From Epibacterium ulvae (GTDB lineage: Bacteria > Pseudomonadota > Alphaproteobacteria > Rhodobacterales > Rhodobacteraceae), in assembly GCF_018678075.1 (NCBI RefSeq), contig NZ_JAHHIR010000025.1, positions 62,001 through 126,000 of the forward strand: a DNA stretch of 64,000 nucleotides, written 5' to 3'. The notes beneath the pieces are model-generated. The model was not told the origin of the DNA. It searched no databases and saw only the letters and a program-made list of their open reading frames with translations. The stretch's first letter is position 1, and each line of letters begins with the position of its first letter. This document shows positions 713 through 35,319 of the stretch, one piece after another. The position numbers and the translations under genes are program-made.

Positions 713-1228
713 TTATTGGGCCTGAAACGTACTCATCTTTCCTTTGAAGAAGCCAAGCGCGTCACCGGTATCCCGCATGGTGACACGTAAAACGCGTCCG
801 ACAACTATTTCGTGGTCTCCTCCGTCATAAATTGCATGGCGACTACATTCGAAACGGGCCAGACATCCCTCCAGAACCGGCACGCCCTCGGCGTTTTGGG
901 CCACGTCCAATTTGGACAGGGCTGACATGTCCTTGGCCACATCCCAGCACAGATCACTTTGTTCCGTCGAAAGCACGTGAACCGCGAAATACTCTGCCTC
1001 GACAAAATATGGGAATCGACGCGAGGCCTTTTGCGGTGACCACAGAACCAATGGCGGATCGATGGAGACTGACGAAAAACTATTGGCGGTGATTGCGACG
1101 GGGCCCTCATTGGACCCTACGGTCACGACGGTGACACCCGTTGCAAACCGACCAAAAGCATCGCGCAGGTTGCGCGCATTGCTCGCATCAGGCTCGAATT
1201 GCTGCATGTTATCCAATGAGGCCAGCAT
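713..1228 (-). CDS. smoA: Flavin reductase family protein (SmoA-like)
   Basis: 171 residues, the normal length for a single-domain flavin reductase-like (HpaC/DIM6-NTAB type) protein. Family features are ATGVTVVT at residues 29-36 and ANSFSSVSIDPPLV at 48-61, which line the flavin site, and a GGDHEIVVGRV segment toward the C-terminus. It would use NAD(P)H to make reduced FMN for a two-component monooxygenase. The start is 2 nt past the aldo/keto reductase stop, so the genes are translationally linked, and the monooxygenase is one gene further upstream. That arrangement argues it is the reductase partner of that enzyme, as SmoA is for SmoC in sulfoquinovose degradation. The symbol rests on context; the enzyme class is clear. 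Confidence 0.85.
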   Translation of the reverse strand: MLASLDNMQQFEPDASNARNLRDAFGRFATGVTVVTVGSNEGPVAITANSFSSVSIDPPLVLWSPQKASRRFPYFVEAEYFAVHVLSTEQSDLCWDVAKDMSALSKLDVAQNAEGVPVLEGCLARFECSRHAIYDGGDHEIVVGRVLRVTMRDTGDALGFFKGKMSTFQAQ

Positions 1229-1230
1229 CC

Positions 1231-2124
1231 CTATGCAACCTCATGACCAAGTGCCGCTTCATAGAGCGAGAACCAGGTTGGCCGGTCCAGCTCAACCCGC
1301 AGTGCATCCGAAATGGAGGCAATTCGGTCGAGGTTATTGGTGCCCATCACCGGCAAGATATGCGCCGGGTGTCGCAACAAAAAAGCCACGGCAACGGCCG
1401 CGCGATCAACACCTTGTTCGGTCGCGATCTTGTCCAAATGCTGCGCCAACTGCCCGTTGCCGGTCATCAGCGATCCACCACCCAGCGGTGACCACGCCAT
1501 GATCGGCTGGCGGTGATGTTGGTGAAAAGCCACATCACCATTGGTAAACGGGGTGATTTCCGACAGCGAAACTTCCATCTGGTTGGTGACCAGTTTCGAC
1601 GACATCCCTGATTGCAGCAATTGCCAATCCCAGGGGCGGAAATTGGAGACGCCAACCGCGCGGACCTTACCGCTGGCAATCACATCGTCCAGCGCTTTGC
1701 CGGTCTCTGCGTGATCCATCAAGGGGTCGGGACGGTGGATCAGCAAAAGGTCGACGTGATCGATCTGCATTGCCTGCAAAGACAGGTCTACAGATTTGAA
1801 AATATGCGCGCGTGAGGTGTCGTAATACTTCACCGGCGCATCCGCATAACGTCCACATGGCGCAACGATGTCACATTTGGTGACAACCTCAATCCGGTCG
1901 CGCAGTGCAGGATTTGCGCCCAGCGCAGCACCCAGAACGGCCTCGGCCCCATAATCGCCATAGATATCCGCCTGGTCAAAGGTGGTGATCCCCTGTTCCA
2001 GGCAGGTGTTGATTTTGGCCTCAACATGGGCAGGCGATGTATCTTTATCGTCAGCCAAACGCCACATGCCATAGATCAAGCGGCTAAAAGACAGGTCCGG
2101 GGTGAGTGTGACACGCGGCATCAT
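1231..2124 (-). CDS. smoB: Aldo/keto reductase (SmoB-like, candidate 6-oxo-glucose reductase)
   Basis: 297 residues from the ATG at 2122-2124. This start overlaps the upstream monooxygenase stop (TAATG) and has a GGAG ribosome binding site; a longer reading frame to 2202 would run deep into the monooxygenase gene. The AKR catalytic tetrad is visible: Asp50, Tyr55 (FDQADIYG), Lys83 (VVTKCD) and His130 (LLLIHRPDP). The sequence resembles the YdhF-like AKR branch. In the sulfo-SMO pathway the AKR SmoB reduces 6-oxo-glucose, released by SQ monooxygenase, to glucose with NADPH. Position between the monooxygenase and the flavin reductase supports that role; substrate is inferred. Confidence 0.87.
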   Translation of the reverse strand: MMPRVTLTPDLSFSRLIYGMWRLADDKDTSPAHVEAKINTCLEQGITTFDQADIYGDYGAEAVLGAALGANPALRDRIEVVTKCDIVAPCGRYADAPVKYYDTSRAHIFKSVDLSLQAMQIDHVDLLLIHRPDPLMDHAETGKALDDVIASGKVRAVGVSNFRPWDWQLLQSGMSSKLVTNQMEVSLSEITPFTNGDVAFHQHHRQPIMAWSPLGGGSLMTGNGQLAQHLDKIATEQGVDRAAVAVAFLLRHPAHILPVMGTNNLDRIASISDALRVELDRPTWFSLYEAALGHEVA

Positions 2125-18089: not shown

Positions 18090-18914
18090 ATGTTTCAGCA
18101 TAATACGCCCCGCACTCCTGCATTTTTTGCCTTCCTCGAAATGAGTGAGGTGATTTTTCATGCCATCGTGCGCAGCGTGAGGTCCAAGCACAACAACGCC
18201 TTGATGGCCCTTGGCCTGACGATTTTTCAGGCGGTGATGTTTGTTGCGATCTTTTTCGCCATGTTCGAAATCTTGGGCGTCAAAGGGGCCGCGATCCGGG
18301 GCGACTTTCTGATCTATGTGATGACCGGCGTCTTTCTGTTCCTGACCCATACCAAAGCGGTCAGCGCTGTCGCCGGTGCCGAAGGGCCCAGCAGTCCGAT
18401 GATGCAGCACGCGCCGATGAACACCATTGTGGCAATTGTATCCGCGGCTCTTGGATCGCTTTATCTGCAGACCCTGGCGCTGGTGATCATCTTGTTTGGC
18501 TACCACGTCGCGTTCACCCCTGTTGTGATCGAAGATCCGGTCTCAGCCTATGGAATGATGTTGATCGCCTGGTTTTCTGGCGCCTGCATCGGGCTGGTCT
18601 TTTTGATCATGAAACCATGGGCCCCGTCGGTGGTTGGTATCTTTTCCACCATCTACCAACGGGCCAATATGATCGCCTCTGGCAAGATGTTCCTGGCCAA
18701 CACGCTGCCGACGTCCATGCTGGTCATGTTCGATTGGAACCCGCTGTTTCACTGCATCGACCAAGTGCGCGGCTACACGTTCAAGAATTACAACCCGCAT
18801 TTCAGCAATTGGGAATATGCGCTGACGGTTGCGCTGGTCTTGCTGGTGATCGGGATGATGGGCGAATTCTATACCCGCCGCAAAGTCTCCCTCAGCTGGA
18901 GCGCGCGACGCTAG
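18090..18914 (+). CDS. ABC-2 type polysaccharide export permease (KpsM/Wzm-like)
   Basis: 274 residues from ATG 18090; a TTG at 18081 is also in frame. Six hydrophobic helices are visible, starting with LMALGLTIFQAVMFVAIFFAMF and ending with ALVLLVIGMMGEF, as in capsule or O-antigen ABC permeases. The C-terminal WNPLFHCIDQVRGYTF block is characteristic of KpsM/Wzm-type proteins. The ATP-binding partner (KpsT/Wzt) is not in the window, so it must be elsewhere. It is divergent from cysQ and converges on alkB with only 2 bp between stops. Confidence 0.85.
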   Translation: MFQHNTPRTPAFFAFLEMSEVIFHAIVRSVRSKHNNALMALGLTIFQAVMFVAIFFAMFEILGVKGAAIRGDFLIYVMTGVFLFLTHTKAVSAVAGAEGPSSPMMQHAPMNTIVAIVSAALGSLYLQTLALVIILFGYHVAFTPVVIEDPVSAYGMMLIAWFSGACIGLVFLIMKPWAPSVVGIFSTIYQRANMIASGKMFLANTLPTSMLVMFDWNPLFHCIDQVRGYTFKNYNPHFSNWEYALTVALVLLVIGMMGEFYTRRKVSLSWSARR

Positions 18915-30119: not shown

Positions 30120-31346
30120 ATGGCTGGTTCGCTTCCGGTGTCCCCATTGGCACCAGAAAAATTCCCCACGCTTCCTGTTATTAGTGGCGTAACTTTTGCA
30201 AGCGCATCTGCGGGGGTAAAGTACCAAGGGCGCGATGATGTGATGTTGGCCGTTCTGCAGCCCGGAAGCGCGGTCGCTGGGGTATTCACCAAATCCAAGA
30301 CCCGTGCAGCACCCGTACTGGATTGTCAGGCGAAACTTGGCGGCGCGAATTCCGACGGCGCGGCTATACTGGTTAACTCGGGCAATGCAAATGCGTTCAC
30401 CGGACAATTCGGCCAAGCCTCGGTCAAAGAGATTACGTCAGCAGTTTCCGCGTCCCTTAACGTTCCTGAGGAACGCGTGTTCACCTCTTCGACCGGTGTC
30501 ATTGGTGAACCACTGCCTCATGATCGGATCACGGCCAAGATTGGTGAGCTGGGCGGCACCTTATCTAAGAAGGGTATCGAAGACGCCGCTAAGGCGATCA
30601 TGACCACGGATACTTTTGCGAAGGGGTCAGGCGCGACGATCACCATCGACAGTCAAGAGGTCCAGATCGCAGGCATCGCCAAGGGCTCTGGCATGATCGC
30701 GCCGGACATGGCGACGATGCTGGTCTATATCTTTACCGACGCCATATACGAACAATCCGCGTTACAAGCGTTGCTGTCCGGTCTGAACGAAACAAGCTTT
30801 AACGCAATAACGGTCGACAGCGATACCTCAACCTCGGACAGTTTGTTGCTGTGTGCGACGGGCGCATCTGGTGTTGACGCAACCGGCAATGCTGACTTTG
30901 CAGCGGCGCTCAATTCCGTCATGCTGGACTTGGCCCATCAGGTTGTCCGCGATGGTGAGGGTGCGACCAAATTCATCGAAATCCAAATCACCGGCGCGGT
31001 TTCCAACGGTGAAGCCAAGACACACGGGCTGGCGATTGCAAATTCACCTTTGGTGAAGACCGCGATTGCGGGCGAAGATCCCAACTGGGGACGTGTGGTC
31101 ATGGCGATTGGCAAGTCCGGAGCCGAGGCCGACCGCGATCGGTTGTCGATCTCCTTTGGCGATGTTCTGGTGGCTGAAAAGGGCTGGGTCGCGGACACCT
31201 ACCGCGAAGAGCTCGGCGCGGCTGAGATGAAGAAACAGGACATCACAATGCACGTCGACCTTGGGCTTGGTTCGGGCAAAGCGACCGTTTGGACGTGTGA
31301 TTTGACCCACCAATACATCACGATCAATGCAGACTACCGCTCATGA
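30120..31346 (+). CDS. argJ: Bifunctional ornithine acetyltransferase / N-acetylglutamate synthase ArgJ
   Basis: 408 residues. The autocleavage site is KGSGMIAPDMATM, with Thr199 as the expected nucleophile of the beta chain. Also present are NSGNANAFTG and DPNWGRVVMAIGKSGA, both family signatures. It transfers the acetyl group from acetylornithine to glutamate in arginine synthesis and is probably able to start the pathway with acetyl-CoA. Its stop overlaps the mutT start (ATGA). ArgG is encoded 29 kb away. Confidence 0.97.
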   Translation: MAGSLPVSPLAPEKFPTLPVISGVTFASASAGVKYQGRDDVMLAVLQPGSAVAGVFTKSKTRAAPVLDCQAKLGGANSDGAAILVNSGNANAFTGQFGQASVKEITSAVSASLNVPEERVFTSSTGVIGEPLPHDRITAKIGELGGTLSKKGIEDAAKAIMTTDTFAKGSGATITIDSQEVQIAGIAKGSGMIAPDMATMLVYIFTDAIYEQSALQALLSGLNETSFNAITVDSDTSTSDSLLLCATGASGVDATGNADFAAALNSVMLDLAHQVVRDGEGATKFIEIQITGAVSNGEAKTHGLAIANSPLVKTAIAGEDPNWGRVVMAIGKSGAEADRDRLSISFGDVLVAEKGWVADTYREELGAAEMKKQDITMHVDLGLGSGKATVWTCDLTHQYITINADYRS

Positions 31347-31741
31347 AGACGGTCCTTGTTTCAGCGGTCGCCTTGATTGATCCCGACGGGCGTATCCTTT
31401 TGGCGCAGCGCCCCGAAGGGAAATCGATGGCCGGTATGTGGGAATTTCCCGGTGGCAAAATCGAACCTGGTGAAACACCCGAGGCGGCTTTGGTTCGGGA
31501 ATTGCAGGAAGAGCTGGGCATCAACACTTGGAAATCCTGCTTGGCTCCGCTGACATTCGCCAGCCATAGTTATGAAGACTTTCACCTACTGATGCCGCTT
31601 TTCGCCTGCCGAAAGTGGGAGGGCATTCCGCAAGGGAAAGAGGGTCAGACGCTCAAATGGGTGATTCCCCAAGATTTGCGAAACTATGACATGCCCCCGG
31701 CAGATATTCCGCTGATTCCTATACTTCGAGACTGGCTATAG
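31343..31741 (+). CDS. mutT: 8-oxo-dGTP diphosphatase MutT (NUDIX)
   Basis: 132 residues. The NUDIX box is GGKIEPGETPEAALVRELQEE followed by LGI, with all metal-binding glutamates in place. The opening VLVSAVALIDPDGRILLAQRPEGKSMAGMWEFP is typical of MutT, which removes oxidised dGTP from the nucleotide pool. It overlaps argJ by 4 nt. Confidence 0.93.
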   Translation: MKTVLVSAVALIDPDGRILLAQRPEGKSMAGMWEFPGGKIEPGETPEAALVRELQEELGINTWKSCLAPLTFASHSYEDFHLLMPLFACRKWEGIPQGKEGQTLKWVIPQDLRNYDMPPADIPLIPILRDWL

Positions 31742-31835
31742 GTTTTTGTTTCGATATTTTGGAAAAGAGTACGTTTTTAAAGTGACTTTTTCTTGATCAG
31801 AAACAAGTTTCGCTAGCTTACTTTGTGAACTTTTT

Positions 31836-31896
31836 GTTAAGATCTACCCTAAAGGATGACACTGCAAGGTCATACTTCTCCATTTTGGATCTTAAC
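31836..31896 (+). promoter_or_regulatory. Structured 5' leader upstream of the 40-codon gene
   Basis: GTTAAGATC (31836-31844) pairs perfectly with GATCTTAAC (31888-31896), closing a 61-nt region that contains an inner hairpin ATGAC (31856-31860)/GTCAT (31869-31873). The outer stem ends directly before the GGGAGG ribosome binding site (31897-31902) of the gene at 31910. It could be a cis-regulatory RNA element controlling translation; no known riboswitch class was recognised. Confidence 0.5.
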
Positions 31897-31909
31897 GGGA
31901 GGGCGTTTC

Positions 31910-32032
31910 ATGATCCGGACTATCACTATGGGTACTTATGTGTCTGTTCAGGGTGTATTTTCACACTCTCTGCCCAACGGCAAGATTGCTGTTAAAGTGG
32001 GCAAAAAGGTTTACGAAGGCAAGCCAGTCTAA
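31910..32032 (+). CDS. 40-residue conserved small protein, function unknown
   Basis: Translates as a 40-residue basic peptide starting MIRTITMGTYVSVQG and ending KVYEGKPV. It has a clear GGGAGG ribosome binding site 7 nt upstream and is followed 35 nt later by a classical terminator, so it is a complete transcription unit. Valines and glycines alternate as in a small beta-barrel or SH3-like strand pattern, but I do not recognise a domain. From memory, similar small proteins occur in other Rhodobacteraceae. No signal peptide or membrane segment is visible. It lies in an otherwise gene-free 440-bp gap. Confidence 0.7.
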   Translation: MIRTITMGTYVSVQGVFSHSLPNGKIAVKVGKKVYEGKPV

Positions 32033-32066: not shown

Positions 32067-32095
32067 GAAGGCGGCCTCTGGTCGCCTTCTTTTTT
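32067..32095 (+). terminator. Intrinsic terminator of the 40-codon gene
   Basis: GAAGGCG (32067-32073) pairs with CGCCTTC (32083-32089) around a 9-nt loop, followed by six T residues. Confidence 0.9.
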
Positions 32096-32182: not shown

Positions 32183-34690
32183 TTAGTCAAGCGTACGTGT
32201 AACTTCTTCGCGCTCGAAGATCTCAATAACGTCATTGGCGCGGATGTCATCATAGTTCTCGAACGCCATACCGCATTCTTGACCAGACTGAACCTCGGCC
32301 ACTTCGTCCTTGAAGCGCTTCAGCGTTTTCAGCGTGCCTTCGTGGATCACCACGTTGTCGCGCAGCAGACGTACACCTGCAGAGCGGCGTGCAACGCCTT
32401 CGGTCACCAGACAGCCTGCAACCTTACCAACGTTGGATACCTTAAAGACATCCTTGATGGTCGCGTAACCGATAAAGTTCTCCTTGATTTCCGCCGACAA
32501 CAGGCCAGAAGCCGCTGCTTTTACATCATCAACGAGGTCATAGATCACCGAGTAATAGCGGATCTCGACGCCTTTTTGGTTCGCTGTATTTCGCGCAGAC
32601 GTATTGGCACGGACGTTAAAGCCCATGACCGGCGCGCCGGATGCTTCGGCCAGACCGATGTCCGTTTCCGTGATCGCGCCCACACCGGAGTGCAGAACAC
32701 GGACTCGGACTTCATCGTTGCCGATTTTTTCCATCGCCTGAACGATCGCTTCGGCAGAACCCTGAACGTCAGCTTTGACCAGGATCGGCAGTTCAGAGAC
32801 GTTCTCGTCGTCTTTTGCCTTCTGCATTAACTGTTCCAAGGTCGTCGCGGCACCAGCTGCGGCCCGTTTGTCCTTGGCTGCGTTTGCGCGATATTCAGCG
32901 ATTTCACGCGCTTGTGCTTCGGTATCTGTCACGTTCAAAACGTCACCAGCTTCTGGTGTACCATTCAGACCCAGAACCTCAACTGGAACGGAGGGGCCTG
33001 CTTCTTTGACGCGCTCGCCCTTGTCGTTGATCAACGCACGGACTTTACCGTACTGCTCACCCACAACAAAGATGTCACCTTGGCGCAAAGTGCCTTTTTG
33101 AACCAGAACGGTTGCAACAGGACCGCGACCCACATCAAGCTGCGCCTCGATCACGGCACCTTGGGCGGCGCGATCTGGGTTGGCTTTCAGTTCAAGGATT
33201 TCGGACTGCAGCGCAATGGCTTCCAGCAGTTCATCCAGACCCTGACCTGTGTGCGCAGAGACTTCGACGTCTTGCACTTCACCGGACATGGCTTCCACGA
33301 TCACTTCGTGTTGCAGAAGCTCGGCACGTACTTTGTTTGCATCGGCCGCAGGTTTGTCGATCTTGTTGATCGCGACGATCATCGGCACCTGGGCCGCTTT
33401 TGCGTGGGCAATCGCTTCGACGGTCTGTGGCATCACCGAATCGTCGGCGGCGACAACCAGAACCACGACATCCGTGACCTGAGCACCGCGAGACCGCATC
33501 GACGTAAAGGCCGCGTGGCCAGGTGTGTCGAGGAAGGACAGCGTGGTGCCACCTTCTGTTTTCACCTGATAGGCGCCGATGTGCTGTGTGATACCGCCAG
33601 CTTCGCCAGACACAACTTTGGCGTCACGGATGGCGTCCAAGAGCGATGTCTTACCGTGGTCAACGTGGCCCATGATGGTGATCACAGGTGGACGTGACTG
33701 CAGGTCGCCTTCGTTTTCTTCGATGTCCTGGATCACGTCTTCAACGTCAGCATCCGAGACACGAACAACTTTGTGGCCGAATTCTTCGATGATCAGTTCG
33801 GCAGTATCAGCGTCGACGGTTTGGTTCTGTGTCACCATCATGCCCATATTCATGAGCGATTTGACAACATCACCAACGCGTTCGGCCATACGGTTCGCAA
33901 GCTCAGAAACCACGATGGCTTCTGGCAGCTGAACGTCACGAACTACCTTTTCGCGCTCAACCGTCCCCATGGCTTTTTGACGGGCACGTTCTTGCTTACG
34001 ACGCATGGATGCAACAGAACGTTGACGTCCACCGGCACCACCGGTTGCCTGGCTCAGCGTCAGTTTACCTGAACGGCGGCCTCCGTCTTGGTTCTTGTTA
34101 CGACCACGCTCTTCGCGCTCACGGTCAGATTTGCGCGGCGTCGCGGCACCGGCCGGCTTGAACGATGGTCCAGGACGGGCGGAAGCAGGAGCTGGGGCGG
34201 CGGCGGCAGGCGCTTTTTTCTTTTCGGCGGCTGCGGTCGCTTGGTCAGCTGCGCGTTTTTTTGCTTCGGCAGCTTCGGCGCGCTTGCGCTCTTCTTCTTC
34301 GGCCTTTTGGCGCGCGCGTTCTTCAGCTTCACGCTGTTCGCGCTCTTTGGCTTCCAGCTCTGCGCGGCGACGCTCACGATCTTCGGCGCGCGCTTTCTCT
34401 GCGGCAGCGCGTTCGGCTGCTTCTTCGACTTCGCGTGCTTTGGCTGCTTGCAGAGCTTTCAGACGGCGTGCCATTTCCGCATCAGAAATGCCTGCGGGGC
34501 GACGCGATGCATCACCCGAGCCGCCGACTCCGCCACCTGGCTTTCCGGCGCCCGGCTTGGGAACCACAACGCGCTTGCGTTTGGTTTCCACCACGACATT
34601 TTTGGTCCGCCCGTGGCTGAAACTCTGTTTCACGTTCCCAGGACGGGAACCACGCAAACCCAATGTCTTTTTGCCGTCATTATCGCTCAT
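32183..34690 (-). CDS. infB: Translation initiation factor IF-2
   Basis: 835 residues from the ATG at 34688-34690; the frame continues to 34858 but that extension overlaps ylxR. A long lysine, alanine and glutamate-rich N-terminal region is followed by an IF2-N helix and the GTPase motifs [22 protein letters not shown] and NKIDKP. The C-terminal domains end with [20 protein letters not shown]. It places initiator tRNA on the ribosome. The gene is last in the operon, 8 nt after ylxR. Confidence 0.98.
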
Positions 34691-34698
34691 AAAGCTCT

Positions 34699-35319
34699 TT
34701 ATCCTTCCGTGCGGCCGTTGCCGCCCTTCAATTCGCGCAAACCTTGCAGTCGTTGCGCTTCCTCTACAACACGTTTGCTGAGTCCACCAGAGGCGAGGGC
34801 CGCATGTATGACAGTTTCGCGTCCAAATGCCATCCCGAGCTCGTTTGCGGTCATACAACCAACAAATTTTCCCTTATAGGGTGTGCTCAGTTTGGACTTT
34901 CCGCGCGCGGATCCATCAGACGCTTGCAAAAGGATCCTTGCTTCTTCTTTGATCAGCCAGTCTTTGACCTTTTCGTAACCCGCAATGGCTTGACCAGACT
35001 TCCGGGCAAGGCTGATTAGGTCCACCAACCGCCGTGCGATCTGCGTTTCAATCTCGTCAATAAGATCGCCGCGCATCTTTACCTGAGACTTGAAGCCACG
35101 TGCAAAGAGTTTCTTTTTGATTGCCTCTTCCAGCGCAGAGCGTTCGGACGCGACATAGACACCACGGCCTGGAAGTTTTCCCATCACATCCGGAAAAACC
35201 TCATCGTCAGGACTCAGAACAAAGCGGATCAACCCGTGTTTGGGTTGAATCTCTCCCGTTGCCAAGCATTTACGCTCAGCCCCGTCGCTTCGGTCAGTTG
35301 TGGCACCAGCACGGCCCAT
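34699..35319 (-). CDS. ylxR: YlxR-type RNA-binding protein (DUF448), with L7Ae-like C-terminal domain
   Basis: 206 residues. The N-terminal YlxR fold contains [20 protein letters not shown] and [18 protein letters not shown]. The C-terminal part, [34 protein letters not shown], looks like a ribosomal L7Ae/L30e RNA-binding domain, a fusion common in alphaproteobacteria. In Firmicutes YlxR (RnpM) modulates RNase P; in this clade the role is unknown. Between nusA and infB, as in most bacteria. Confidence 0.9.

What the first reader, a model, noticed from the sequence alone, without database searches (positions are those of the whole stretch)
31836..32032. 40-codon gene with its own structured leader and terminator
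Seen: a 9-bp outer stem (31836-31844 with 31888-31896), an inner hairpin, a GGGAGG site directly after the stem, a 40-codon gene and a T-run terminator, all within 260 bp. The frame is not listed by usual size limits. The stem placement beside the ribosome binding site suggests a cis-acting RNA switch. No known riboswitch class was recognised.
Basis: partly seen in the sequence, partly recalled or inferred. Interest (0 to 1): 0.6.

Follow-up and report, generated by a model that had tools for sequence, protein, structure and literature searches.

The report
Tiny conserved protein with hairpin leader
A 40-residue protein found in most of the sampled Rhodobacteraceae genera also turns up as the front end of some sulfate-binding proteins, while the folded RNA in front of it was found in only four close relatives and is probably not a widespread switch.

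Summary
In detail: the 9-bp arms, the GGGAGGG site, the 40-codon frame and the terminator are where stated. The frame is a real gene: 167 of 248 sampled family genomes, one per genus, encode a relative, typically in the order argJ-mutT-X, convergent with infB. It has no Pfam, NCBIfam or PHROGs match. AlphaFold predicts a four-stranded barrel, mean pLDDT 95. Unexpectedly, the same 40 residues begin some sulfate-binding protein precursors, ahead of the signal peptide. Other copies sit on plasmids and two viral contigs.

The 'RNA switch' is only partly supported. The helix extends to 17 G-U-tolerant pairs and hides the ribosome site, but its DNA was found in 4 of 61 genomes. The outer helix shows no compensatory change and is interrupted in one of four. 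Its 5' arm is also kept without the 3' arm, in other genera and in 5 of 10 sister loci lacking the gene, so it probably serves DNA. No Rfam class matches. I favour a transcript-start-dependent block: read-through RNA closed, RNA from the gene's own promoter open. That mechanism is inferred.

The parts
31343..31741 (+). upstream neighbour, mutT-type NUDIX hydrolase
   Evidence: Pfam NUDIX_4 1.8e-27; found beside the gene in 79 of 80 named loci
31827..31840 (+). GAACTTTTTGTTAA, conserved element overlapping the 5' arm; probably promoter or operator DNA (inferred)
   Evidence: pattern RAACYTTTTGTTAA occurs once in each of 8 chosen genus genomes, always in this gap, 4 with and 4 without the gene; the reversed control pattern also occurs once in 3 of the 8
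31830..31846 (+).
31856..31873 (+). inner hairpin ATGAC-(8 nt)-GTCAT
   Evidence: 2 of 5 pairs change on both sides in one of four sequences
31886..31902 (+). 3' arm of the extended helix, includes most of the ribosome site
31897..31903 (+). Shine-Dalgarno GGGAGGG
   Evidence: sequence; predicted about 1% unpaired at 37 C in RNA from 31829, 47% from 31836, 83% from 31842 or 31855
31884..31891 (+). segment that can pair instead with 31912-31919 (first codons), the alternative open fold
   Evidence: predicted fold of RNA starting at 31855
31910..32032 (+). 40-codon gene, product MIRTITMGTYVSVQG...EGKPV, predicted small beta barrel
   Evidence: conservation, codon pattern, AlphaFold mean pLDDT 95.4
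32067..32095 (+). intrinsic terminator-like hairpin and T-run
   Evidence: kept in the close relatives
32183..34858 (-). convergent infB (translation initiation factor IF-2; name recognised by me, not from a call)
   Evidence: ORF; convergent with mutT in 76 of 80 named loci

Best explanation
Shown by sequence: the 40-codon frame is a conserved protein gene of the Rhodobacteraceae whose product is homologous to a 40-residue module in front of the signal peptide of some sulfate-binding protein precursors. Predicted: it folds as a minimal four-stranded beta barrel. Inferred: the free protein is a cytoplasmic adaptor or regulator, most likely linked to sulfate uptake or sulfur status, because the sulfate-binding protein is the only larger protein I saw it fused to. 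Inferred: in the four Tritonibacter-like genomes the leader works as a transcript-start-dependent translation block. RNA that starts upstream of about 31830 (for example read-through from mutT) folds the 17-pair helix and hides GGGAGGG; RNA from a promoter lying within the 5' arm lacks that arm, keeps the inner hairpin and is translated. Likelihoods: real gene 0.97; homology to the sulfate-binding module 0.95; sulfur link of function 0.4; start-dependent block 0.35.
For: Family: 13 of 61 genomes at E below 1e-6, own included; 220 encoding stretches in named genomes; 167 of 248 family genomes; of 289 class genomes 3 match at E<=0.001, all of the same family. Synteny. Fold. Module homology: hhalign probability 99.2, E 2.7e-19 over 40 columns; two fusions scanned are named sulfate ABC transporter substrate-binding proteins; identity among 11 fusions 46% in the module, 26% in linker and signal peptide, 75% in the binding protein; the same four strands are modelled in the fusion, pLDDT blocks 78-91 there. 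Leader: 1 of 300 shuffles gives as long a helix; ribosome site about 1% open in RNA from 31829, 83% from 31842 on; the 5' arm element is kept without the 3' arm.
Against: No transcription start is known and the sigma-70 scan found none. An RNA starting at 31836 would be half open (0.35-0.57), so the block depends on the exact start. In G017 two outer pairs are lost without compensation and the site is predicted 25-62% open at 37 C even with the arm present. Only four leaders exist: 28 of 500 shuffles reach the covariation score. In three gene-less gaps the 5' element has another predicted partner (columns 6-12 with 70-76), so an RNA role of the arm is not excluded. The sulfur link rests on a minority: 15 of 248 genomes had a second match, 13 of these in a sulfate-binding frame; the window's genome has one match only. 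PDB fold matches are weak (best E 1.6).
Confidence: 0.5

Rival explanations
1. The inverted repeat is mainly a DNA feature (promoter or operator half-site plus a chance complement); the leader RNA has no switching role and the gene is simply expressed from its own promoter.
For: The 5' arm element occurs in 5 of 10 gene-less gaps, none of which holds the 3' arm GATCTTAAC; of 12 among 90 leaders with TGAA-N7-TTAA, the 8 outside the clade lack the 3' arm, and five of these keep the element 86-88 nt before the start codon (84 in the clade); the outer helix has no two-sided change.
Against: A G-U-tolerant helix of 17 pairs ending on the ribosome site arises in 1 of 300 shuffles; 3 of 4 leaders keep it closed; in gene-less gaps the element may pair elsewhere.
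Confidence: 0.3
2. One reading: a cis-acting RNA switch (riboswitch or thermometer) that opens the ribosome site on a signal.
For: Closed helix over the ribosome site with a U-rich strand opposite GGGAGG; mutually exclusive fold with the first codons; two compensated inner pairs.
Against: 4 of 61 genomes only; no Rfam class; no predicted melting from 10 to 50 C in 3 of 4; outer helix interrupted in G017.
Confidence: 0.15
3. The transcript is a coding small RNA with a second, RNA-level role, like Pos19 of Rhodobacter sphaeroides; sister genomes without the frame keep an RNA from the same promoter.
For: Terminator behind the frame; gene-less gaps keep the 5' element, and three of them share a foldable stretch of about 300 nt in which 13 of 76 predicted pairs change on both sides; ACTCAC before the terminator is seen in 4 of 5 gene-bearing and 3 of 10 gene-less gaps. 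Pos19 lowers cys transcripts including cysP (PMC5036791: abstract, section 5 and the first part of section 10 read; passages of others).
Against: Only three sequences in that fold; beyond the 5' element and the 3' end the window does not align with the gene-less gaps; no RNA data; in Pos19 the effect did not need the peptide (abstract).
Confidence: 0.15
4. The frame is not translated and is conserved by accident or as RNA.
For: No proteomic evidence was available to me.
Against: 167 of 248 sampled genera keep the protein, third-position bias, fusion in frame to a longer protein.
Confidence: 0.03

Closest known systems
Sulfate ABC transporter substrate-binding protein (TIGR00971 / NF008022)
   Same: Its precursor in some Rhodobacteraceae starts with the same 40-residue module
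   Different: Here the module is a free protein of 40 residues beside mutT, with no transporter gene next to it
Pos19, coding small RNA of Rhodobacter sphaeroides (PMC5036791)
   Same: Short transcript with its own promoter and terminator, a small translated frame (150 nt), effect on sulfur genes including cysP
   Different: Between cxp and fadB on chromosome 2, RpoE promoter, reported as not found in other species; its peptide sequence is not in the text I read, so homology is untested
Hfq / Sm-like and SH3-like small beta barrels
   Same: Small barrel; Caulobacter Hfq is Foldseek's first hit (E 1.6)
   Different: 40 residues only; matches are weak (best VIA Z 4.3, to a Tudor domain)
Read-through protection of transposase genes in IS10/IS50 (recalled; the listing showed no paper on it)
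   Same: Outside transcripts fold an inverted repeat over the ribosome site, inside transcripts do not
   Different: No insertion sequence here; start site not mapped
fourU-type RNA thermometers (recalled)
   Same: U-run opposite a purine-rich ribosome site
   Different: Much longer helix; no predicted melting from 10 to 50 C in 3 of 4 sequences

Membership tests
N-terminal module of sulfate-binding protein precursors | homology over the whole module | tested here: met
   hhalign probability 99.2, 40 of 40 columns
N-terminal module of sulfate-binding protein precursors | fused in frame to a sulfate-binding protein | tested here: not met
   the window product ends after 40 residues; it is a free relative
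Known riboswitch or other Rfam cis-regulatory RNA | match to a curated covariance model at its gathering score | tested here: not met
   none in or near the leader; at E<=0.5 four sub-threshold hits in 7 loci, none on the leader
Conserved cis-acting RNA switch | compensatory changes in homologous leaders | tested here: inconclusive
   0 of 17 outer pairs, 2 of 5 inner pairs, four sequences
RNA thermometer | ribosome site opens with temperature | tested here: inconclusive
   computed only: closed 10-50 C in 3 of 4; G017 opens from 0.04 to 0.73 if RNA starts at 31829 but not if it starts at 31815 (0.67 to 0.37)
Hfq/Sm-like proteins | Sm fold and ring assembly | tested here: inconclusive
   weak fold hits; assembly not testable
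Pos19-type coding sRNA | homology of the peptide | not testable with these tools
   the sequence is shown in a figure, not in the text I read
Pfam / NCBIfam / PHROGs family | profile match | tested here: not met
   0 families at E<=10 for the window protein; PADLOC not searched

The most novel reading that the evidence does not exclude
A previously unnamed 40-residue barrel domain acts as a free cytoplasmic partner and as a pre-signal-peptide module of the sulfate-binding protein, coupling synthesis or export of the transporter to sulfur status; in one clade its synthesis is gated by where transcription starts, and in sister species the coding RNA has turned into a non-coding one.
Probability: 0.15. 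Interest if true: 0.8.

Novelty: new variant of a known kind. Interest (0 to 1): 0.5.

Why it matters
A protein kept in about two thirds of the sampled Rhodobacteraceae genera (167 of 248) has no match in the three family libraries I searched, and 14 of 15 plasmid records with a relative show no gene under it in their (incomplete) tables. Its fusion to sulfate-binding proteins gives a functional lead that can be tested in well-studied, harmless organisms such as Paracoccus denitrificans, which carries it (L086). A folded domain placed before a signal peptide is, as far as I know, unusual and raises the question of what the cytoplasmic stub does after cleavage. The leader, if start-dependent, would be a neat natural insulation against read-through.

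Tried and rejected
Rfam identity: none. Sigma-70 promoter scan: none. By eye I tried to place -35/-10 boxes (for example TTGTGA 31823-31828 and TACCCT 31845-31850); the second is not conserved in G012, so I do not claim it. A CtrA-type site (TTAA-N7-TTAA, recalled) was considered for the 5' element; a term search of PMC8116508 gave no such motif and I dropped it. OB-fold (PriB, E 1.1) and FlbD (E 0.16) resemblances are too weak to keep; bactofilin was only a thought. Two out-of-family hits of the fusion profile (E 0.0026 and 0.0034, partial, inside 780- and 699-residue frames) were taken as chance. Phage records: no match at E<=1 with a consensus query. A nucleotide search of plasmids with one gene-less gap found nothing. 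Term searches of two sRNA papers (PMC4809877, PMC5107571; main text, not supplements) found no infB or mutT. Nine literature searches (open-licence PMC library only) listed no paper that I recognised as about this protein; subscription journals are not covered. Second matches of the fusion profile in G086 and G162 and a match in G062 were not looked at; of 11 Sulfitobacter plasmid records two were opened.

Rows dropped or doubled: L014-L018 were chance hits (E 0.048 to 0.88) and left out; L002-L004 were counted through named duplicates L019-L021; the 90 leaders are 89 distinct (L006 = L036). An error of mine: the infB query was translated in a wrong frame; searches use the right one. The eight genomes were chosen because the gap was already known to hold the element, so only the absence of further copies is news there.

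Full report
What is there. All elements of the finding are at the stated places. One of 300 dinucleotide shuffles of the gap gives as long a helix; 13 of 300 give a Watson-Crick stem of 9 bp or more. By total energy the leader is not remarkable (z -1.73, 10 of 200 shuffles as good).

The gene is real. Thirteen of 61 genomes, the window's own included, match at E below 1e-6 over 40 residues. A pattern scan of named genomes gave 220 encoding stretches, of which the best 80 were kept. With an alignment, 167 of 248 family genomes (one per genus, drawn from a larger group) match at E<=0.001. Among 289 genomes drawn from the class three match, and all three are of the same family. In the 80 named loci mutT and argJ are found in 79 and infB in 76, convergent with mutT in all 76; in 27 further unnamed family loci mutT is found in 26 and infB in 27. 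Codon differences to three close relatives are mostly synonymous: 7 to 1, 7 to 4, 22 to 7. Pfam, NCBIfam and PHROGs give nothing at E<=10.

Structure. AlphaFold on 40 sequences gives mean pLDDT 95.4 (pTM 0.66; the five models average 95.4 to 72.4) and four strands, 2-7, 11-20, 26-30, 33-39. Foldseek against the PDB has no hit better than E 1.6, with Caulobacter Hfq first. The VIA second look tops at Z 4.3, with Tudor, biotin ligase, integrase C-terminal and Lsm chains among the rows. In the viral library one 57-residue protein is 51% identical over 39 residues (E 1e-3). I read this as a minimal SH3/Sm-like barrel; membership in any of these families is not shown.

A second home for the same module. 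A plasmid search found 15 records with a relative, 14 of them with no listed gene under the match. In Ponticoccus and Thioclava the module is the start of the sulfate-binding protein, behind an Rrf2-type regulator gene. Fifteen of the 248 family genomes had a second match. Fetched again, those second copies are: twelve that run on into a sulfate-binding sequence (370-398 residues from the module's first aligned residue), a thirteenth (L178) of the same kind whose match begins at module residue 12, one free 41-residue copy (L170) and one partial match of 21 positions (L181). NCBIfam names the two that I scanned as sulfate ABC transporter substrate-binding proteins. Among 11 fusions identity is 46% in the module, 26% in linker and signal, 75% in the binding protein. 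Profile comparison of free and fused modules: probability 99.2, E 2.7e-19. The fusion model reproduces the four strands (pLDDT 78-91 in the module; 65.4 overall, so the rest is poor). Free copies also sit on two Paracoccus plasmids and, in the two Sulfitobacter records opened, after a mannose-1-phosphate guanylyltransferase gene, and on two viral contigs beside genes that I read as phage-like.

The leader. Its DNA is found in 4 of 61 genomes. On these four, 96.6% of cells pair; the outer helix has 13 of 17 invariant pairs, none changed on both sides, three broken in one sequence each (two in G017, one in G012); the inner hairpin has two pairs changed on both sides, both in G017; 28 of 500 shuffles reach the overall score. 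So there is modest support for the inner hairpin and none from covariation for the outer stem. Over 90 leaders (89 distinct) the ribosome site is unpaired with median 0.45; 8 lie below 0.05, three of them from this clade. Hiding the site is not a family habit.

The 5' arm looks like DNA. In the genus, 5 of 18 genomes have the gene. Of 17 with mutT, 5 have the gene, 10 have a complete mutT-infB gap without it, and in 2 infB is not within the fetched stretch. Five of the 10 gene-less gaps keep (A/G)AACCTTTTRTTAA, and none of the five holds GATCTTAAC. In eight genomes chosen for having the element it has no second exact copy; the reversed control pattern occurs once in three of the eight, so single copies alone are near chance and it is the place that tells. 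Among the 90 leaders 12 carry TGAA-N7-TTAA: the four of the clade with the 3' arm, and eight without it, five of them with the element 86-88 nt before the start codon against 84 in the clade. Against this, in a consensus fold of three gene-less gaps the element pairs with another segment.

Mechanism. Because the element overlaps the 5' arm, the most economical reading is that the gene's own promoter lies in or next to it. In G000 and G002, RNA from 31815 or 31829 is predicted closed (6% open or less from 10 to 50 C), RNA from 31842 or 31855 open (about 83%), and RNA from 31836 half open (0.35-0.57). G012 behaves alike for the long RNAs and for a start at 31855; from 31842 its open state weakens with heat (0.83 to 0.41) and from 31836 it is 0.46-0.75 open. 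G017 is leaky: 25% or 62% open at 37 C for the two long RNAs. This is computed from sequence; no start site has been measured. The role of the protein is a guess from the fusion partner. Pos19 of R. sphaeroides, a coding small RNA that lowers cys transcripts, is an intriguing parallel, but its peptide sequence was not in the text I read.

Verdict. Observation confirmed; switch interpretation partly supported and probably too broad; the protein family and its fusion to sulfate-binding proteins are the more interesting result.

Noticed in passing
L201 and L203 (about 1215-1514, minus strand), L204 (1501-1800): After the same 5' element three gene-less sister genomes share a conserved, foldable stretch of about 300 nt; 13 of 76 predicted pairs change on both sides. 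Possibly a non-coding RNA that replaced the gene.
   Followed up: partly
L167, L168, L169, L171-L174, L176, L124, L125, upstream of the module: By eye, a recurring CACGAC...GACGTGATT...CACGAC...CTGTCGT type motif before 10 of 14 printed sulfate-binding fusions; the free copy L170 has a similar stretch. Suggests one shared regulator.
   Followed up: no
L197 and L198, 5001-5120: Free copies of the module on two viral contigs next to genes that I read as phage-like; a 57-residue protein of the viral structure library is 51% identical.
   Followed up: partly
window 18657-18809, minus strand: Match to Rfam RF02645, Ruegeria cis2 sRNA, 83.8 bits; in R. pomeroyi cis2 is listed as antisense to an ABC transporter permease (PMC4809877, passage).
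   Followed up: no
window 31800-31811: GAAACAAGTTTC, a short palindrome upstream of the leader; GAAACAAGTTT is kept in three of the four clade sequences.
   Followed up: no
L099-L103, L110, L115, 3' part of the mutT-infB gap: ACTCAC occurs downstream of the frame in 4 of 5 gene-bearing gaps and in 3 of 10 gene-less gaps; in the G011 gap (L103) the alignment with the window runs from there through the terminator.
   Followed up: partly
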